64,000 bases of DNA from an uncultured Caldimonas sp. (GTDB taxonomy: Bacteria; Pseudomonadota; Gammaproteobacteria; Burkholderiales; Burkholderiaceae), in the NCBI RefSeq assembly GCF_946480305.1, contig NZ_CAMLJQ010000002.1, positions 186,001 to 250,000 on the forward strand. Direction: 5' to 3'. The notes under the pieces are model-generated. The model did not search any database and was not told the DNA's origin. It was given only the letters and a program-made list of their open reading frames with translations. The stretch's first letter is position 1; the number at the start of each line of letters is the position of its first letter. A program made the translations under genes and the position numbers. Shown here in pieces: positions 51,258 to 59,239 of the stretch.

Positions 51258-51555
51258 GACGAAGCCGGACACAGAGTGACGAATAGCAGTGAAAACATGC
51301 AGCGAACACGTCTTCGGCTATGAATGAAGGCCCCTTCAACGGCAGAACAGCAGGGCCTGCAGAAAACCGAGGAAGCCTATCAACGCAGTTGATGTAACTA
51401 CACGCGCAGATAAGGGGTGTCGGCACGGTCTGCCTGGTGATACTCGATCGACGCCATGCACGCGCGTCCGGATCTGCACCTCACCGGTCCGAAATCGAGC
51501 GGTCAGCGTCGGGCCGCGCCACTACGCTGGTGTTCTTCACCTGCGCAGGCTGCCC

Positions 51556-51804
51556 ATGCTCCAACTGAGACCGAACTGCGAATGCTGCAACGTCGACCTG
51601 CCCGCCGATAGCGCCGACGCGCGCATCTGCTCCTTCGAGTGCACCTTCTGCGCCGCCTGCGCAAGCGTCAAACTTGCCGGCCGATGCCCCAACTGCGGCG
51701 GCGAACTCGTCGCGCGGCCAAGGCGGCCGGCCGGCAAGCTTGCCAGCTATCCCGCTTCCACACAGCGAGTGCACAAGCCCCAGGGGTGCGCGGCATCCGG
51801 TTGA
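51556..51804 (+). CDS. DUF1272 zinc-binding protein
   Basis: An 82-residue protein with the DUF1272 core: 'MLQLRPNCECCNVDLPADSA', 'ARICSFECTFCAACASVKLA', 'GRCPNCGGELVARPRRPAGK'. Nine cysteines in paired arrangement indicate two zinc sites. Short family of unknown role, frequent near regulatory or transport genes in Proteobacteria. Confidence 0.93.
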   Translation: MLQLRPNCECCNVDLPADSADARICSFECTFCAACASVKLAGRCPNCGGELVARPRRPAGKLASYPASTQRVHKPQGCAASG

Positions 51805-51938
51805 ACGGAGTCGGCTCCCGGCCATGCCGTCTGGATCGGCTTGCATTGCAGCAGGCCGGCACAAACCGCCGGCGGGCAGGTTGCCGGGTAGGGCGATCCA
51901 CTATGCTTGCCGCCTGACCCGACGGACTTCGCTCACCC

Positions 51939-52370
51939 ATGCAACCCAGCGCGCAGGACATCATCGACCAGCTCCGGCTGCAACCTCATCCCGAAGGTGG
52001 TTGGTACCGTGAATACTGGCGCGGCCCCGACGCGGCCGGCCGAGGAACCGGCACAGCGATCTACTACCTCCTGCAACATGGGCAGAGGTCGCATTGGCAT
52101 CGAATCGATGCCACCGAGCTGTGGCTCTTTCACGCGGGTGGACCGCTTCGTCTCATGACGGCCCAAGACGGCGCCGTCGTCGAACGACAACTCGGGCCCA
52201 ACCTTCTGGCAGGCGAAGTCCTGCAGACCGTCATCGAACCCTGGGTCTGGCAGGCCGCAACTCCCGAGGCGGAGTGGACCTTGGTGAGCTGCGTCGTGAC
52301 GCCCGCCTTCGAGTTCGCCGGTTTTGAAATGGCTCCGCCGGAATGGCAGCCGGGAAGTGCGTCGGCCTGA
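51939..52370 (+). CDS. Cupin family protein (DUF985-type)
   Basis: A 143-residue cupin of the DUF985/YML079w type: 'IIDQLRLQPHPEGGWYREYW', 'TAIYYLLQHGQRSHWHRIDA', 'TELWLFHAGGPLRL', then 'WQAATPEAEWTLVSCVVTPA' and 'FEFAGFEMAPPEW'. The family is conserved in bacteria and plants; its ligand is unclear. It stands alone, upstream of the defence-like module. Confidence 0.9.
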   Translation: MQPSAQDIIDQLRLQPHPEGGWYREYWRGPDAAGRGTGTAIYYLLQHGQRSHWHRIDATELWLFHAGGPLRLMTAQDGAVVERQLGPNLLAGEVLQTVIEPWVWQAATPEAEWTLVSCVVTPAFEFAGFEMAPPEWQPGSASA

Positions 52371-52758
52371 GAGGCCGATTGAGACTGATCCCAGTCATTC
52401 GTCACCCACGCCGTGAATGACACCTGCGACCGTCACCAGTCACTCGCCGGTCGGCACAGTCTACGATCGCTTCAGCTACAACGCCGGCAGGTCGACGTAC
52501 AGCGCCTATGTCCCGGTGGTGATGGGGCGAGCTTGCCCAGCGCGAACTGGAACACCCGATCCGTTGTTGACGCTGAAATGCCTGGCAGCAGACATCGCGT
52601 GAGCGTCGATACCAGTGTGTCAGCTTTGGTTGACATATGAGTGCCCCCGCGCGGGCAGACGACCGAATTCCACCAAACCGATGATCAGGCGATCAGCGGA
52701 ACGATCGCGGGAACGATCGGGACAACCAGCAATATTTCTGAAACGAAGTGGCCATAAA
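52371..52758. other. Intergenic region upstream of the ATPase-protease module
   Basis: About 388 bases without a supported gene; GC is lower than in neighbouring housekeeping genes. A 61-codon plus frame (52417-52602) has no protein-like features. The tandem 12-mers at 52698-52721 and an A/T-rich segment before the start codon are the promoter-like elements I can see. Confidence 0.5.
52698..52721 (+). promoter_or_regulatory. Tandem 12-bp repeats upstream of ietA
   Basis: Two adjacent units, GGAACGATCGCG (52698-52709) and GGAACGATCGGG (52710-52721), each with the palindrome CGATCG. They end 37 bases before the ATG of the ATPase. A third partial GCGATCAGC lies just upstream. Likely a binding site for a regulator, possibly the ATPase itself if the pair is autoregulated as toxin-antitoxin modules are. 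Confidence 0.4.
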
Positions 52759-53964
52759 ATGAGACAATCATCCGAAAATACGGATCAGCTCGTGGACCAC
52801 TTGTCGGAAGTTCTCAAGATACTCGATGGCGCACTGCGCGCCAACGCGAGCATGGCGTCGAACTACGCCGGCCTTCTTGCGGACAAGCTGGAGCAGTCTG
52901 GCGATCGACAACAAGCGCGACAGATCCGTGAGCGCCTCGCGCGCGCGCCTGTGGGGCTGGCTACGGCTCAGGACGGGTCTCGGGGGATCAGTCTGAACAA
53001 TCTGCCCGTGGATGGCGAGAGCCGGCTGCACACCGTCGACGTCAGCCAGCCGACGGCGGACGCCGTTCCGCTGGTGCTGCCAAGCGCAATCGAGATGCGG
53101 GTGCGCGAGTTTCTCGAGAGCGTTCGCCACCACGATGCCCTGTCCAAGGCTGGCGCTTCGTTGGCCAACAGACTACTGGTCCACGGCCCCCCAGGGACGG
53201 GGAAGACCCAACTGGCCCGCTGGCTGGCCGCCCAACTTGCGGCCCCCCTTCTCACCGTGCGTTGCGACACGCTCGTCAGCAGCCTGCTCGGACAGACCAG
53301 CCGCAATTTGCGCCGCGTCTTCGAGTATGCGGAACAGCGGCCGTGCGTGCTCTTTCTTGACGAGTTCGACGCCCTCGGCTCGGCTCGAGGAAACGAACGA
53401 GATGTGGGCGAACTGCAGCGAGTGGTCATCGCGCTGCTGCAAAACATCGACGCAATGCCCGACAGCACAGTTCTGCTGGCATCGACCAATCACGATCAAC
53501 TGCTCGACCCGGCCGTCTGGCGACGCTTCAGCTTTCGCATCCCAATGCCCATGCCCGATGCAGTCATGCGAGAACAACTTTGGTCGCAGTTCCTGGGTTC
53601 ATACGCACCGAAGGACCTGCGCATGACAACACTCGTGCGTCGCTCCGAAGGCGTGAGCGGGGCGGTGGTCGAGCAGGTGTCACTGGATGCCAAGCGCAGC
53701 GCGGTCCTGGCAGGGCTGCCGCAAGTCGATGAAGACGAACTATTCAGGCGCCTTGGGCTGGCCATGGCGATGATGGAAAGTGTGCCGCTGAGCACACGCG
53801 AAGCGGAGATCAATTGGTTGCGTCGTTGGGACCAAAAGATCTTCTCGCTACGGACGCTGGCCAAGCTCTACAAAGTCTCATTGCGCCACGTCACCAACAT
53901 AACGCAGGAAGGGGGTGCATATGGCAACAAGGAGGACGGGAAAACGCTCATCGAACCAGAGTGA
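52759..53964 (+). CDS. ietA: AAA+ ATPase, IetA-like, partner of a subtilisin-like protease
   Basis: A 401-residue ATPase of the classical (FtsH/spastin-like) AAA clade. Residues 1-60 are helical ('TDQLVDHLSEVLKILDGALR'); Walker A is GPPGTGKT (143-150), Walker B 'VLFLDEFD' (197-204), sensor 1 Asn244 and the arginine finger pair near 255-256 ('PAVWRRFSFRIP'). The architecture and the subtilase partner match IetA, the antitoxin/ATPase half of the ietAS module first described on an Agrobacterium Ti plasmid and later found protective against phages. The protease gene starts within this one (44-nt overlap), so translation is coupled. Start ATG at 52759; longer starts are in frame but weaker. Confidence 0.85.
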   Translation: MRQSSENTDQLVDHLSEVLKILDGALRANASMASNYAGLLADKLEQSGDRQQARQIRERLARAPVGLATAQDGSRGISLNNLPVDGESRLHTVDVSQPTADAVPLVLPSAIEMRVREFLESVRHHDALSKAGASLANRLLVHGPPGTGKTQLARWLAAQLAAPLLTVRCDTLVSSLLGQTSRNLRRVFEYAEQRPCVLFLDEFDALGSARGNERDVGELQRVVIALLQNIDAMPDSTVLLASTNHDQLLDPAVWRRFSFRIPMPMPDAVMREQLWSQFLGSYAPKDLRMTTLVRRSEGVSGAVVEQVSLDAKRSAVLAGLPQVDEDELFRRLGLAMAMMESVPLSTREAEINWLRRWDQKIFSLRTLAKLYKVSLRHVTNITQEGGAYGNKEDGKTLIEPE

Positions 53965-56227
53965 ACAGCGCCCCCAACCAGACACGCGCAACCCGTTTCA
54001 GCACATCCCGTTTGCCGAGCGGGACCTCCGCGGCGTCGAGCCGGGGGGAAGTGCTCCAAAGGTCTTCGTCGACGTTGACGCCAACTACCGGGAAGCACTC
54101 GCAGGAACTCTCGACGCCGCCGCCCAGGAGCTAGAGGCCGAGCTTGTCGCCTTCCCGCATTCGCTCGGACCATTGGTCGTCCGGCTCCGCGAAGACGGCA
54201 TTGCAAAGTCTCATCGACCCCTGAAGCTTGTGGACGAAACCGGCCTTGTGCCTGCCGGGCACGAGCGGATAGAGGAGATGCTTGTCGGCGCGCACCGCGC
54301 CAGCATTGCGGTGCTTCGTAGCGTCATCCTGGAAAGAGATATCCAGGCCTTCCGTGCGAACTTAAGCGTCATCCGGCGCATCGACCCATGGTCACGCGCC
54401 AGGCGCAACCCAGAGGGCACGCTCGCTTTGCGCGAACGCGGAAGCGCCCTCCTACGGCTTTTCCGCTACGGGAACGATGCCGCAAACTCCCAACTGTTCG
54501 AGTCGATCAAGGCCCTGATGAGCCAGCTCAGGCTCAAGCACCGTTTTTTTCGTCAGGGTCGGCATGGCTGGTTTTACCTCTGTCTTTCTGAGCTCGAGAA
54601 CATTGCCGAGGAGAAGTTCGACGTGTTGCTCGGGTTTCCCGGCGTTCGACGTTTGATGCCAGAGCCCCTGTATCACCAGATGGCAACGACGGGCGCGTCA
54701 GCGCCGGCCGCACCAGGTTCCTTGCCGTTGCCAACAACACCGGGACTGCCAACCGTGGCTGTGTTCGACACCGGCGTCGCTCCGACAGCGTCCGACTTGC
54801 AACCTTGGCTGGTCGGCTCAGAGACATTCGTCCTGCCGCCCGAGACCGACCATCAGCACGGCACGATGGTGGCCTCGCTAGTCGCCGGCGCTCACGCGCT
54901 CAACGCGAGCCATGAGGACCTGCCCGACGTAGGTTCGATGGTCTACAACGTCTGCGGCTTAGAGTCGGTCGCAGGCGGCGGTCGCATCAGTGACCTGACG
55001 ACGAGGCTCGAAGACGCGCTGAAGCGGAGGCCGGACATCCGTGTGTGGAATCTCTCGCTCGGGATGCGCGTTCCATGCAACGAACAGACGTTCAGCGAGT
55101 TCGCTCAGACCCTTGATCGGTTGAGCGATCAACACAATGTCTTGTTCGTCGTAGCCGCAGGCAACTACTTGGACGTACCACGCCGTACGTGGCCCAGTGC
55201 ACCGGATCTACTGGACCGCGTCTCGAGTCCCGGCGAGTCTGTGCGCGCGCTGACGGTCGGGTCGGTATGTCACCTCTCCGATCCGTCAGCACTGAATGCA
55301 GTTGGGGAGCCGGCGGCCTATAGCCGGCGTGGACCCGGGCCCGTCTTCACACCGAAGCCTGACATCGTCCACATCGGCGGCGGGGTACACCAGCCATGGA
55401 ACACAGGCGGCTCGAGCGTCGCAGTGCTGTCTGCCGCCAATACGACGGTCCGGAGTTTCGGCACCAGCTTCGCCGCGCCGGTCGCCGCCAGCATGGCCGC
55501 GCACGTCTGGCAGGCAATGGAAGGCCAGCCAGGGTTGACGCCGAGTCCGTCGTTGGTCAAGGCAGTGATGATCCATGCTGCGCAGCTTTCGTCGCCCGCA
55601 TACTCTCCCGTTGAACGGCGCTACTACGGCACGGGCCTGCCAAAGGACGTCATCACAGGCCTCTACGACCGCCCAGACAGCTTCACCCTTGTGTTCGAGG
55701 CCCGTCTCGTTCCAGGTATGCGATGGCGAAAGGCACCGTATCCCATACCGGCAGGCTTGTTACGCGATGGAAGACTGGCTTGCGAGGTAATCATCACCGC
55801 GGCCTACTCGCCACCTGTGGACCCTGACGCCGGAGCCGAGTACGTGCGCGCGAACGTTGAGATCAGCTTTGGAACCTTGGACGGCGACAAGATCACCAGC
55901 AAGGTGCCCATGAAGGGAGAAGACGGGACAGACGGTTATGAGGCGATGCAGGTAGAGCACGGCGGCAAGTGGGCCCCGGTGAAGATCCATCGGAAGCGCT
56001 TCTCGCAGGGTATTGGCGGGACCGATTGGGCGCTGCAGGCCAGAACGTTCATGCGTGCGTTTGAGCCGGCAATTGCGGAGGGCCTTCAGGTCCACATCAT
56101 CTGCACGTTGCGAGCACTCGACGGAAACCCGGATGTTCATGCACAAGGCTTGCAGGCGCTGGCCGCGACTAACTGGGTGCGGCAGGATCTTCCTCTCCGT
56201 GTGCCGGTCCGCTCAGGGGCTCAGTAG
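53921..56227 (+). CDS. ietS: Subtilisin-like serine protease, IetS-like
   Basis: A 768-residue S8 peptidase with no signal peptide, so it stays in the cytoplasm. The first 270 residues are an uncharacterised helical domain. The catalytic Asp283 ('VAVFDTGVAP'), His313 ('HQHGTMVASLVAG'), oxyanion Asn415 ('VVAAGNYLD') and Ser516 ('FGTSFAAPVAASMAAH') are all in place, so the enzyme should be active. A beta-rich C-terminal domain of about 190 residues follows. The ATG at 53921 follows GGAAGGGGGTGC and lies inside the ATPase gene. A cytosolic active protease tied to an ATPase fits a toxin or abortive-infection effector held in check. Confidence 0.85.
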   Translation: MATRRTGKRSSNQSEQRPQPDTRNPFQHIPFAERDLRGVEPGGSAPKVFVDVDANYREALAGTLDAAAQELEAELVAFPHSLGPLVVRLREDGIAKSHRPLKLVDETGLVPAGHERIEEMLVGAHRASIAVLRSVILERDIQAFRANLSVIRRIDPWSRARRNPEGTLALRERGSALLRLFRYGNDAANSQLFESIKALMSQLRLKHRFFRQGRHGWFYLCLSELENIAEEKFDVLLGFPGVRRLMPEPLYHQMATTGASAPAAPGSLPLPTTPGLPTVAVFDTGVAPTASDLQPWLVGSETFVLPPETDHQHGTMVASLVAGAHALNASHEDLPDVGSMVYNVCGLESVAGGGRISDLTTRLEDALKRRPDIRVWNLSLGMRVPCNEQTFSEFAQTLDRLSDQHNVLFVVAAGNYLDVPRRTWPSAPDLLDRVSSPGESVRALTVGSVCHLSDPSALNAVGEPAAYSRRGPGPVFTPKPDIVHIGGGVHQPWNTGGSSVAVLSAANTTVRSFGTSFAAPVAASMAAHVWQAMEGQPGLTPSPSLVKAVMIHAAQLSSPAYSPVERRYYGTGLPKDVITGLYDRPDSFTLVFEARLVPGMRWRKAPYPIPAGLLRDGRLACEVIITAAYSPPVDPDAGAEYVRANVEISFGTLDGDKITSKVPMKGEDGTDGYEAMQVEHGGKWAPVKIHRKRFSQGIGGTDWALQARTFMRAFEPAIAEGLQVHIICTLRALDGNPDVHAQGLQALAATNWVRQDLPLRVPVRSGAQ

Positions 56228-56231
56228 TTCA

Positions 56232-56312
56232 ATGGGCCGCGATGACTCTGGTGCGCTCCTCGAACAGCGCCACCTATTTGCGATTTACAACCGGGAAGGT
56301 GGGCGTGGATGA
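56232..56312 (+). CDS. Micro-ORF (26 codons) bridging the protease and Abi genes
   Basis: An ATG four bases after the protease stop opens a 26-residue frame ('MGRDDSGALLEQRHLFAIYN' plus six residues) whose TGA overlaps the ATG of the next gene as ATGA. Both junctions are spaced as in translationally coupled genes. It may encode a small protein or serve only to carry ribosomes onto the next gene. No family can be assigned at this length. Confidence 0.35.
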   Translation: MGRDDSGALLEQRHLFAIYNREGGRG

Positions 56313-57106
56313 TTCGCTTTCATGAGGGGTCGGGCTCGAGTGAGATCGAGCTGTTGGACGCGGCTTTCACGCAGGCCGAGTGGACCCAACTACGCGCTGT
56401 CTCGATACGGCTCCTCGAGCGTCGCGGTCACTTTCCGGCGGGCGAATTTCTGTCCCACCATCCCTTCGGCCTCTTCCGCGGGACCAATGGCTTTGGTGAC
56501 GACTTCTGTGTGCTCTACATGCAGGTCGAAATGGACAAGTATGTCGAGCTCGCGGAAATGGCCGACGACATGCAAATGCGCCACAACGCCAAGCTCGCCG
56601 CTGCAACTGTCGGTGAAGTGAGCGGCCAACATGTGCGCTTTGTCGCCATGGATCTTGTGCAAGCCACCGAACCCGAGGCCGTTGCGCCGCCGGTCCTTGA
56701 GATCACGTCCGACACTGTTGAGCGCGCGCTCCGGGACGCCGAGCGCCTGCTCGCGACCGAGGGAGCGACAAGTGGTGTGGACCGGATCCACACCGCGTTC
56801 CATGGCTACCTGCGCGCGCTCGCCTCGAGAGCCAACCTCAGTCACTCAGTCACAGCCGGGGTAACGGAACTATTCCGCCTGATCCGTTCACAGCATCCGT
56901 CGTTCGCCGCAAATGCGCCTCACCAAGCTGAGATCGACAAGATCCTCCGAGCCCTCGCGAACGTTGTCGACACGTTGAATCCGCTGCGCAATCAAGGCAG
57001 TGTGGCCCACCCCAACGTCGATCTCCTGGCAGAGCCGGAGGCGATGCTATTTATCAACAGCGTTCGATGTCTGCTTCACTACATGAACGCGAAGACAAAG
57101 ATGTAG
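56309..57106 (+). CDS. Abi_C-like protein with HEPN-type motif, third gene of the module
   Basis: A 265-residue protein. Residues 1-125 are a domain I do not recognise ('FLSHHPFGLFRGTNGFGDDF', 'MQVEMDKYVELAEMADDMQM'). The C-terminal half resembles the abortive-infection C-terminal domain (Abi_C): 'GVDRIHTAFHGYLRALASRA' at 156-175 and 'LRNQGSVAHPN' near 226-236. Arg227-Asn and His234 form R-N-x5-H, i.e. an Rx6H as in HEPN ribonucleases. The family link is from memory of pattern and needs a profile search. The start overlaps the micro-ORF stop. It is probably co-expressed with the ATPase and protease and may act as an RNase effector or sensor. Confidence 0.75.
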   Translation: MIRFHEGSGSSEIELLDAAFTQAEWTQLRAVSIRLLERRGHFPAGEFLSHHPFGLFRGTNGFGDDFCVLYMQVEMDKYVELAEMADDMQMRHNAKLAAATVGEVSGQHVRFVAMDLVQATEPEAVAPPVLEITSDTVERALRDAERLLATEGATSGVDRIHTAFHGYLRALASRANLSHSVTAGVTELFRLIRSQHPSFAANAPHQAEIDKILRALANVVDTLNPLRNQGSVAHPNVDLLAEPEAMLFINSVRCLLHYMNAKTKM

Positions 57107-57334
57107 ACAGATGCCTGGGCGACCGGGCACTGGACAGGACCGAATCAACCACAAAGCGAGCGACCGCTTAGTGACAGACAGCGTGAGTTCGCCGGTCCGA
57201 GTCGACCGGCCGCAATCGCTGCCAAGCAGCCCACCCGCCACACACCTCACGCCCGGTCCCTAACCTGAGGGGATTGTTCTCATCTCCCCCTCCTCGCACA
57301 CTGCCCCTCCACGGTCCGCGACCAGGGAGCTTCC

Positions 57335-57979
57335 ATGCAACTCGTGAAAGCGTTTCATCAAGGTGTGCTGGGCGAAGGCTGTTGCTTTCGCTTGTCGGTG
57401 AAGTGGGTGGCGCTGGTGCTGGCGGGGGACGACCCCGCGGCGAGCCTCTACCTCGACAACCAAAGGCCGCAGAACTCGACGAGCGTGAAGCAGGCGGCCT
57501 ATGCCCAGGCCGCTGACCAGCTGGGCGTGAACCTCGTGACCTTGCAGGAGCGGATCACCGCCAACTGGATCAACACCACGCAATCCAGCCGGGCCTCGGC
57601 GAACCGCAGCCACACAGCGCTGGTCTACACCACCTCGGTGGACTTCGAGAGCGACTTGCAGGCGTGCTACGTCAACCGTGATGGCGAGGCAGACATCGTC
57701 AAGTGGGCCACCTTTTCGCCCATCAAGTTCGGCGGGTGGTCGGCGGTGCTGCTCAGTTCGTGGAACCCGCCGCACACGGTGGCCATCGCCAGGTCACGCC
57801 TTCGCGGCGGAAGGCTCTACGGTTTCGACCCCAACCTCGGTGTCGTGACGTCGAACACCCCGCAGCAGGATCTGGCACCTTTCCTGCGTGAGTTCATCGA
57901 GTGGATGGCCGCCATGGGCCAGCAGCAGCTGAAGGATGCCAAGACCTTCGTGGCCGACGCGGTGGTCGTCGTGCAATGA
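57335..57979 (+). CDS. Putative YopT-like (C58) cysteine protease
   Basis: A 214-residue protein. Residues 13-24 read 'GEGCCFRLSVKW', matching the CxxLSxKW nucleophile motif of the YopT/AvrPphB peptidases (Cys17). His147 lies in 'WNPPHTVAIARSR' and Asp165 in 'LYGFDPNLGVV', with the His-to-Asp gap (18) and Cys-to-His gap (130) near those of YopT. The third segment matches the usual 'FDxNxG' strand. Those enzymes are secreted effectors that cleave host proteins; here there is no signal peptide or N-terminal extension. It lies 228 bp after the Abi-like gene. The assignment is by motif only. Confidence 0.6.
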   Translation: MQLVKAFHQGVLGEGCCFRLSVKWVALVLAGDDPAASLYLDNQRPQNSTSVKQAAYAQAADQLGVNLVTLQERITANWINTTQSSRASANRSHTALVYTTSVDFESDLQACYVNRDGEADIVKWATFSPIKFGGWSAVLLSSWNPPHTVAIARSRLRGGRLYGFDPNLGVVTSNTPQQDLAPFLREFIEWMAAMGQQQLKDAKTFVADAVVVVQ

Positions 57980-58066
57980 GCGGGCGGGAGGCAGCGGCGC
58001 TGCGGCTGCGGCCTCGGTAGAGGCCCGCGCTTGAGCGGGGAGGCCGTTGCTGGCAGTATCGCCGTC

Positions 58067-59239
58067 ATGCTTTTTCCACCAAATACTGTTCGCCTCCAGC
58101 TCGACAAGACCCGCCAGGCGTGGGAGCGGTACGTCTCTTCCGGCGCGCTCAACGCGGCCGAGGTTCGCCCGCTCGTTGCCGCGGCCTGGCAGCGCTCGGC
58201 GGCCGCGGGCTGCGATGCGCGCCAGGCCAAGGCGAGCTTGCTCTCGCCGCGGGACACCATCGAGTTGCTCAAGGGCGAGTCCCGCCTGATCGACAGTGCC
58301 TCTCCGTTCCTGTCGGCCTTGTCGCGTGCGGCAGGTGGCGAACGGCATGCCGCGATGCTGGGCGACCGGCATGGCCGGGTCCTGAAGATCGTGGGCGACC
58401 CGGAGACCATGGCCGACGAAAGCTTTCCGCGCGCGGGCAGCCTGCTCTCGGAAGAGCTGGCCGGCGCAAACGGCATCGGCACGGCGCTGGCGCAGGGTTG
58501 CTACGTCGAGCTGGTCGGGCCCGAGCACTACATCGAAGGCTTTCACGTGTTCACGTGCCAGGGCGTGCCGCTGCTCTCGCCGAGCGGCGGCGCGGCCGGG
58601 GTGCTGAGCATGTCGGTGCGTCGGCAGGAAACGGCAGCCAAGGTGCGCGACATCCTGGTCTGCGCAACACAAGCCACCGAATGCGAGCTGCTGGCGGAAC
58701 AGCTGTCGGACGGGCTCTCCATGCCGGGGCCGTTCGAGAGGGTGGTGGAATCCTTGCGGCTGGACGTCGTCCACCGGATCAACCTGGCACGCCTGCGGCT
58801 GGAGCAGGCCGCGCATCGGCTCGCCGTGGGCATGAGCGCGGAGGAAACGCTGCGCACGGCCCAGCAGCTGGTACGGAAGTTCCGGCAGGCGGCCGCGGCG
58901 TGGCGCAACCTGGTGGGCGACGGCACGAATGCACCGCAGCCCCTGTGTTTTGCCGACATGCTGGAAGACTTCGTCACGCTGCTGGAGCCGCTGATCCGCT
59001 CCAGCAAGCTGAGCGTGCGTTGGGACCGGGTGGACCAGACCGTGGTGCTGGACGATGCCCAAGCGCTTTCGCAGAAGGTGCTGACGGTGTTTCTCGATGC
59101 GATGCAGATGGCGCTGCCCGAAAGCGAGCTGCGCGTGAGCATCACCTCCGCAGAGAACGAGAGCCTGCTGATGATCTCGGTCTGGGGCACCGACGGGAAC
59201 TTCCACGACTACCGGACGACGGCGCCCAACCTGAAGTAG
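58067..59239 (+). CDS. GAF-domain protein with degenerate kinase-like C-terminus
   Basis: A 390-residue protein. Residues 1-195 resemble the N-terminal sensory half of AcoR-type activators: 'RQAWERYVSSGALNAAEVRP', 'AWQRSAAAGCDARQAKASLL', then the GAF 'GNDAVILEDPETM'-like region 'GRVLKIVGDPETMADESFPR' and 'LSEELAGANGIGTALAQGCY'. The AAA+ domain of AcoR is absent. Instead residues 215-385 look like a worn-out histidine-kinase core: a dimerisation-like helix pair with no clear phospho-His motif, and an ATPase-like fold with no N or G boxes. The ATG at 58067 is preferred. Probably a sensor that works by protein interaction. Confidence 0.72.
   Translation: MLFPPNTVRLQLDKTRQAWERYVSSGALNAAEVRPLVAAAWQRSAAAGCDARQAKASLLSPRDTIELLKGESRLIDSASPFLSALSRAAGGERHAAMLGDRHGRVLKIVGDPETMADESFPRAGSLLSEELAGANGIGTALAQGCYVELVGPEHYIEGFHVFTCQGVPLLSPSGGAAGVLSMSVRRQETAAKVRDILVCATQATECELLAEQLSDGLSMPGPFERVVESLRLDVVHRINLARLRLEQAAHRLAVGMSAEETLRTAQQLVRKFRQAAAAWRNLVGDGTNAPQPLCFADMLEDFVTLLEPLIRSSKLSVRWDRVDQTVVLDDAQALSQKVLTVFLDAMQMALPESELRVSITSAENESLLMISVWGTDGNFHDYRTTAPNLK

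What the first reader, a model, noticed from the sequence alone, without database searches (positions are those of the whole stretch)
52759..57106. ietAS-like ATPase-protease module extended by an Abi_C/HEPN-like third gene
Seen in the sequence: an AAA+ ATPase gene overlapping by 44 nt a cytosolic subtilisin-like protease with an intact Asp-His-Ser set, followed by a micro-ORF and a gene whose C-terminal half has an Abi_C-like pattern and an Arg-Asn-x5-His motif. Known: ietAS (AAA+ ATPase plus S8 protease) is a toxin-antitoxin pair on Ti plasmids and a phage-defence system in Gao et al. 2020. Inference: the third gene makes this a variant with a second, RNA-targeting effector or sensor. I know of no description of a three-gene ietAS with Abi_C.
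Basis: partly seen in the sequence, partly recalled or inferred. Interest (0 to 1): 0.85.

Follow-up and report, generated by a model that had tools for sequence, protein, structure and literature searches.

The report
Two phage-defence modules travelling together
A known protease-type bacterial defence pair (ietAS) sits next to a separate, probably RNA-cutting self-sacrifice gene; the three genes have moved between bacteria as one block, but in the genomes sampled each half is mostly found without the other, so this looks like two defences packed together rather than one new three-part machine.

Summary
The genes are real. IetA and IetS pass NCBI's curated cut-offs for these anti-phage proteins. 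The third protein (P3) carries Abi_C (E 1.1e-12) and its modelled C-terminal half resembles HEPN structures; R227, N228 and H234 (R-N-x5-H) are kept in 107, 107 and 106 of 107 aligned sequences. The 26-codon micro-ORF is intact in one of two close copies. P3's N-terminal domain folds confidently but matched no Pfam family and no clear known fold.
Linkage decides the reading. Two other genomes carry the same 4.85-kb ietA-ietS-P3 block (91%, 88%) with unlike flanks. But 78 of 80 loci of P3 relatives show no IetS in the fetched flank, and 14 of 14 other close ietAS loci show no P3; some carry other defence families after ietS.
Best reading: ietAS and an AbiJ-type HEPN abortive-infection gene, joined once into a mobile two-system islet and acting in parallel. 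Direct coupling (for example IetS cutting P3's linker) is not excluded but has no support here.

The parts
   Evidence: NF042959 576 bits against cut-off 510; PADLOC IetA E 1.1e-144; Walker A/B; stop in the 52759 frame in L001; ORFs of L116, L117, L119-L121 begin at the equal of 52792
53921..56227 (+). ietS: S8 (subtilisin-family) protease, toxin of the pair
   Evidence: NF042956 1066 bits against cut-off 900; PADLOC IetS E 1.7e-285; catalytic blocks intact
56309..57106 (+). P3: AbiJ-type protein; N-terminal alpha/beta domain (residues 1 to about 118) plus HEPN domain (about 128-265)
   Evidence: Abi_C PF14355 E 1.1e-12, matched by 34 of 34 scanned relatives; PADLOC AbiJ matched by 34 of 34; HEPN structures lead the fold comparison
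56987..57010 (+). RNQGSVAH = HEPN R-N-x5-H motif of P3 (residues 227-234)
   Evidence: R and N in 107 of 107, H in 106 of 107 aligned sequences; identical in L001 and L002
56232..56312 (+). 26-codon micro-ORF; probably just the leader between ietS and P3
   Evidence: intact in L001, frame lost in L002; the 81-bp gap is 88% and 74% identical
52376..57225 (.). the mobile three-gene block shared with L001 and L002, flanks unlike
   Evidence: blastn 91.5% over 4850 bp and 88.4% over 4852 bp; GC 0.618 against 0.677 (10 kb left) and 0.705 (right, to the window end)

Best explanation
The locus is a small mobile defence islet made of two independent anti-phage modules. Module 1 is a bona fide ietAS pair: IetA (AAA+ ATPase) restrains IetS (S8 protease), and when that restraint is lost IetS damages the cell. 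Module 2 is a stand-alone AbiJ-type protein: its N-terminal domain senses or gates, and its C-terminal HEPN domain, probably as a dimer, cuts RNA and stops growth. The two were joined once, in an ancestor of the window, L001 and L002; the block has since moved as a unit and both modules have stayed under purifying selection, giving two parallel layers of defence. Shown here: gene families, motifs, predicted HEPN fold, block boundaries, purifying selection, no such linkage in the other loci sampled. Inferred: RNase activity, sensing by the N-terminal domain, dimer, co-transcription, phage defence by either module here.
For: ietAS membership. P3 as AbiJ-type HEPN. P3 without ietAS: 78 of 80 kept genome loci show no IetS match in the fetched flank (up to 8 kb, several cut by contig ends); L003, the closest outsider (P3 92% in its long piece), shares only 56244-57112 with the window and its genome has no IetS match. 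Little sign of a recurrent P3 partner: among neighbour ORFs of L001-L024 (crude calls, 3.5 kb each side), apart from ietA and ietS in L001/L002, one gene after P3 recurred (L009, L015) and one upstream pair weakly (L009, L017, 28%). ietAS without P3: 0 of 12 genome loci and 0 of 2 plasmid loci; 26 more distant IetS-like loci (L086-L111, about 1.5 kb flanks) also none. Other defence families after ietS: HsdM in L139, PDC-M65A/B in L140, HEC-07 a few ORFs on in L141, Shedu (convergent) in L143 and L112. Block moved as a unit. NG86 dN/dS 0.07 (ietA, the one pair that could be computed), 0.08-0.10 (ietS), 0.11-0.17 (P3); dS 0.30, 0.29-0.42, 0.25-0.37. AbiJ proteins seen as N-terminal sensor plus HEPN RNase toxin: PMC3710099 (passages). 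IetS-like toxin and IetA-like antitoxin shown for SGI1 (PMC5006074) and mycoplasma (PMC8562856): passages seen.
Against: In an apparently identical draw of 399 genomes of one family, P3 was found in 2 and both were ietAS carriers (11 carriers at E<=1e-40), so in that sample P3 occurs only beside ietAS; but the two are copies of one block. The gap is only 81 bp with no terminator-like site in it, so co-transcription is plausible; the scan also shows one promoter-like match at 56284-56313, at chance level (1 found, 0.8 expected). Persistence of the block at dS about 0.3 could mean functional coupling. The HEPN survey notes that AbiJ proteins without N-terminal domains often sit in R-M operons and infers coupling there (PMC3710099, passages).
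Confidence: 0.75

Rival explanations
1. Integrated three-component system: IetS, once freed from IetA during infection, cuts P3 in its disordered linker (about residues 119-132) and so releases the HEPN RNase from its N-terminal domain; P3 is the effector of ietAS.
For: Linker residues 121-124 and 126-128 have pLDDT under 50 between two folded domains; a protease gene lies 81 bp upstream; the block has persisted as a unit. Protease-activated effectors exist in other bacterial immune systems (recalled, no call).
Against: P3 relatives from many phyla show no ietAS beside them, so the domain architecture does not need IetS; the closest P3 outside the block has none; 14 of 14 other close ietAS loci show no P3.
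Confidence: 0.08
2. P3 is a sensor or accessory that widens or tunes ietAS (for example by controlling IetA), without being its substrate.
For: Tight spacing, same strand, no terminator-like site in the gap, block-wise movement.
Against: Same linkage data as above; some ietAS relatives carry other modules in that position, and ietAS-like pairs were shown to work as two-gene toxin-antitoxin modules elsewhere (PMC5006074, PMC8562856: passages).
Confidence: 0.09
3. P3 is a passenger: a chance neighbour carried by hitch-hiking with no present function.
For: The L003 copy outside the block matches in two frames, so copies do decay; the join was seen once.
Against: dN/dS 0.11-0.17 in three comparisons and the HEPN motif intact in the window, L001 and L002.
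Confidence: 0.06

Closest known systems
ietAS (IteA/IteS in NCBIfam; pTiC58-type toxin-antitoxin, listed as a defence system in PADLOC)
   Same: Both proteins pass the equivalog cut-offs; gene order, overlap and catalytic motifs agree.
   Different: Followed by P3 in the same mobile block; the other 14 close ietAS loci examined are not.
AbiJ-type HEPN proteins (Abi_C, PF14355)
   Same: C-terminal HEPN with R-N-x5-H, PADLOC AbiJ match at residues 117-258, N-terminal domain + HEPN architecture.
   Different: The N-terminal 118 residues match no Pfam model in the window protein, nor the AbiJ profile's own N-terminal half; no clear fold match. Whether it equals one of the published AbiJ-NTD1-5 could not be checked against their alignments.
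HepT/MntA (HEPN-MNT) toxin-antitoxin
   Same: HEPN fold; MntA-HepT complexes are among the leading matches.
   Different: In the window P3's neighbours are ietS and, downstream, a C58 peptidase-like gene, not a nucleotidyltransferase; such a partner was not searched for in other loci.
S026-S025 toxin-antitoxin of SGI1 (ietAS-like)
   Same: AAA+ antitoxin and subtilisin-like toxin on a mobile island (PMC5006074, passages).
   Different: Described as two genes; no Abi_C gene mentioned in the passages seen.

Membership tests
ietAS | IetA family ATPase over the curated cut-off | tested here: met
   NF042959 576.3 bits, cut-off 510
ietAS | IetS family S8 protease over the curated cut-off, catalytic blocks intact | tested here: met
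   NF042956 1066.2 bits, cut-off 900; motifs
ietAS | adjacent genes, ATPase first, same strand | tested here: met
   44-nt overlap
ietAS | protease toxic, ATPase neutralises; phage defence | not testable with these tools
   needs expression in a laboratory strain
   0 of 12 genome loci (two of them with under 0.5 kb after ietS) and 0 of 2 plasmid loci show P3; the three-gene order only in window, L001, L002, one block
   IetAS beside P3 relatives in 2 of 80 kept loci; of the 23 loci with a near full-length P3 match, 19 have over 5 kb upstream and 2 of these have ietAS
AbiJ-type HEPN | Abi_C / AbiJ profile match | tested here: met
   PF14355 48.2 bits, cut-off 24; PADLOC AbiJ 34 of 34 relatives at E<=0.1, best 4e-10, window protein 3.8e-4
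AbiJ-type HEPN | HEPN fold | tested here: met
AbiJ-type HEPN | R-x4-6-H catalytic motif (consensus recalled) | tested here: met
   R227 107/107, N228 107/107, H234 106/107
AbiJ-type HEPN | N-terminal domain of one of the published AbiJ-NTD1-5 types | tested here: inconclusive
   apart from Abi_C and HEPN no Pfam family matched more than 3 of 34 members, all weakly (best E 0.016); published alignments (PMC3710099 additional file) not readable here; fold searches without clear match
AbiJ-type HEPN | RNase activity, abortive infection | not testable with these tools
   bench assay needed

The most novel reading that the evidence does not exclude
A proteolytically gated RNase: infection frees IetS from IetA, IetS cuts the flexible linker of P3 and so releases its HEPN domain from an N-terminal clamp, fusing a protease toxin-antitoxin pair and an AbiJ HEPN effector into one two-stage suicide circuit. 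The evidence does not exclude that an originally solo AbiJ protein was co-opted this way in the mobile block.
Probability: 0.07. Interest if true: 0.75.

Novelty: new variant of a known kind. Interest (0 to 1): 0.35.

Why it matters
It separates what is real in a tempting 'new three-gene system' from defence-gene shuffling: the slot after ietS in this clade is filled by different defence families, which makes ietAS a marker for finding others. The third protein belongs to a widespread, mostly solo AbiJ-type family (293 homologues at E<=1e-3) with a confidently folded N-terminal domain that no Pfam model covered, a candidate phage sensor worth a structure and a ligand search. If the two modules turned out to be coupled, it would be a protease-activated RNase defence.

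Tried and rejected
Micro-ORF as a third component or small antitoxin: set aside, since its frame is lost in L002.

Terminal repeats at the block ends: the best inverted repeats were no better than shuffles in three of three copies (0.12, 0.83 and 0.14 of 300 shuffles reached the score); direct repeats were 7-10 bp matches, not tested against shuffles. Rfam: no match up to E 1 in 51500-58500. tRNA target site: no tRNA in the window. Empty site: the stretch right of the block (57335-58000) gave only short DNA matches (about 60 bases or less in the rows shown) in 52 of 399 genomes, so no empty site was found. The window's own genome is not held.

Papers: seven searches were made: ietAS (23 papers, some of them unrelated uses of the string), Abi_C/HEPN/abortive infection (111, 20 listed), IetS/IetA/subtilisin/defense (3), ietAS with 'abortive infection family protein' (0), AbiJ/HEPN/phage defense (60, 15 listed), ietAS with third gene/accessory terms (1, a paper without ietAS), ATPase/protease/HEPN/subtilisin (17, 12 listed). 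I saw listings only, apart from passages of PMC3710099, PMC8562856 and PMC5006074. In these I saw no three-gene ietAS with Abi_C. Yamamoto et al. 2009 is not held; Gao et al. 2020 I did not look up. Absence in print is therefore not claimed.

Limits of counts: one search kept 80 of 137 P3 relatives. L001-L023 match over nearly the whole length (residues 1-262 or more, L003 in two pieces); of these 23, four (L005, L014, L016, L019) have only 0.1-2.0 kb upstream, so 19 can show ietAS upstream and 2 do. Of the 12 genome ietAS loci, L145 and L149 have under 0.5 kb after ietS, and my ORF caller failed on L150 (and on plasmid locus L113); the tblastn test covered all 12. Genes after ietS of seven of these 12 (L139-L144, L147) were scanned against PADLOC, four with a defence family; the other five were not scanned. 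The 14 'close' ietAS loci leave out 26 weaker IetS-like loci (L086-L111), which show no P3 either. The 399 genomes are taken to be the same draw because size and listed handles agree.

Full report
WHAT IS THERE. ORF listing and sequence show three same-strand genes at 52.8-57.1 kb. IetA and IetS pass NCBIfam's equivalog cut-offs (NF042959 576 against 510 bits; NF042956 1066 against 900) and match PADLOC's IetA and IetS profiles (E 1.1e-144 and 1.7e-285). Walker A and B and the S8 Asp, His, Asn and Ser blocks are present and identical in L001 and L002. ietA probably starts at GTG 52792, not 52759: the longer frame has a stop in L001, and in L116, L117 and L119-L121 the ORF can begin no earlier than the equal of 52792; against this, L118, L122 and L002 run further upstream. 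P3 (56309-57106) begins 81 bp after ietS.

LINKAGE, FROM P3. A scan of one genome for each of 84,980 species gave 137 relatives, 80 kept. IetS is beside P3 in L001 and L002 only. L003, whose P3 is the next closest, shares only 56244-57112 with the window, has no IetS match in its genome, and its P3 matches in two frames. Comparing neighbour ORFs of L001-L024, apart from ietA and ietS in L001/L002, one gene following P3 recurred (L009 and L015, 45% over 210 residues; no Pfam match) and one upstream gene weakly (L009 and L017, 28%). P3 therefore looks typically solo.

LINKAGE, FROM IETAS. In 399 genomes of the order of G002, 56 had some IetS match and one was over the cut-off (G002 itself). In 399 genomes of its family, 11 matched IetS at E<=1e-40 and 2 matched P3 at E<=1e-15, namely G001 and G002, so in that sample P3 occurs only beside ietAS. 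None of the other nine, nor three more, shows P3 within the stretch fetched around ietAS (up to 8 kb each side, some cut short), nor do two plasmid loci or 26 weaker IetS-like loci. Of seven of the 12 loci whose following genes were scanned, four carry PADLOC families: type I methyltransferase (L139), PDC-M65A/B (L140), HEC-07 a few ORFs on (L141) and Shedu, convergent (L143); L142 has a transposase; L144 and L147 had no match. The Acidovorax plasmid locus L112 also has Shedu there, by its own annotation. So the slot after ietS is variable.

A MOBILE BLOCK. The window, L001 and L002 share one block, 52376/52382 to 57222/57225, at 91.5% and 88.4% identity, with no other blastn match between the window and these two loci. 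The block's GC is 0.618 against 0.677 and 0.705 in the flanks. NG86 dS is 0.30 for ietA (window-L002 only; the L001 frame has a stop), 0.29-0.42 for ietS and 0.25-0.37 for P3; dN/dS is 0.07, 0.08-0.10 and 0.11-0.17. The genes thus diverged together and are selected. No significant terminal inverted repeats and no empty site were found. The relatives L116-L119 match only within 52775-56208 (ietAS) at about 70%, and L003 only P3 with its leader, so the join lies at about 56209-56244.

HOW IT PROBABLY WORKS. Published work on ietAS-like pairs describes the subtilisin-like protein as toxin and the AAA+ protein as antitoxin (SGI1 in PMC5006074; mycoplasma in PMC8562856; passages). A survey of HEPN proteins describes AbiJ as HEPN fused to various N-terminal domains that may recognise phage components and restrain the RNase; it also notes AbiJ proteins without such domains in R-M operons and infers coupling there (PMC3710099; passages). 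The simplest model here has both modules running side by side. Coupling is possible and cheap to test, but the linkage data argue that neither module needs the other. The 81-bp gap holds no terminator-like site and one promoter-like match at chance level, so transcription of P3 is undecided.

VERDICT. Observation confirmed with small corrections; interpretation partly supported. The three-gene order is real and mobile but arose once as far as seen here; it does not define a subtype of ietAS. The most interesting lead is P3's uncatalogued N-terminal domain.

Noticed in passing
window 57335-57979 (+): A 214-aa protein with a C58 (YopT-type) cysteine peptidase domain match (PF03543 E 1.8e-8) lies just outside the block; only short DNA matches among 399 genomes.
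   Followed up: partly
window 57152-57229: About 78 bp at the right end of the block recur at 82% in 5 Cupriavidus plasmid records; in pMOL28 it lies between an ATPase/hypothetical gene pair and three tyrosine recombinases. Possibly a recombination-related end sequence.
   Followed up: partly
L001:1900-2856 and L140:13519-14478: A MobA/VirD2-type relaxase (L001, PF03432) and a protein with a similar start in L140 lie a few genes upstream of ietAS: ietAS may be cargo of a mobilisable element.
   Followed up: no
L026, L027, L028, L032; proteins P0148, P0149: Longer P3 relatives with roughly 110-120 extra residues between the N-terminal and HEPN domains.
   Followed up: no
L009:6516-7517 and L015:9732-10409: A gene after P3 recurs in two distant genomes (45% over 210 residues), no Pfam match: possible partner in some lineages.
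   Followed up: partly
L003:8001-8790: The closest P3 outside the block matches in two frames, so it looks inactivated; no IetS in that genome.
   Followed up: yes
window 52380-52758: The leader before ietA is conserved at 80% and 75% although I recognised no gene there; perhaps promoter or block end.
   Followed up: no
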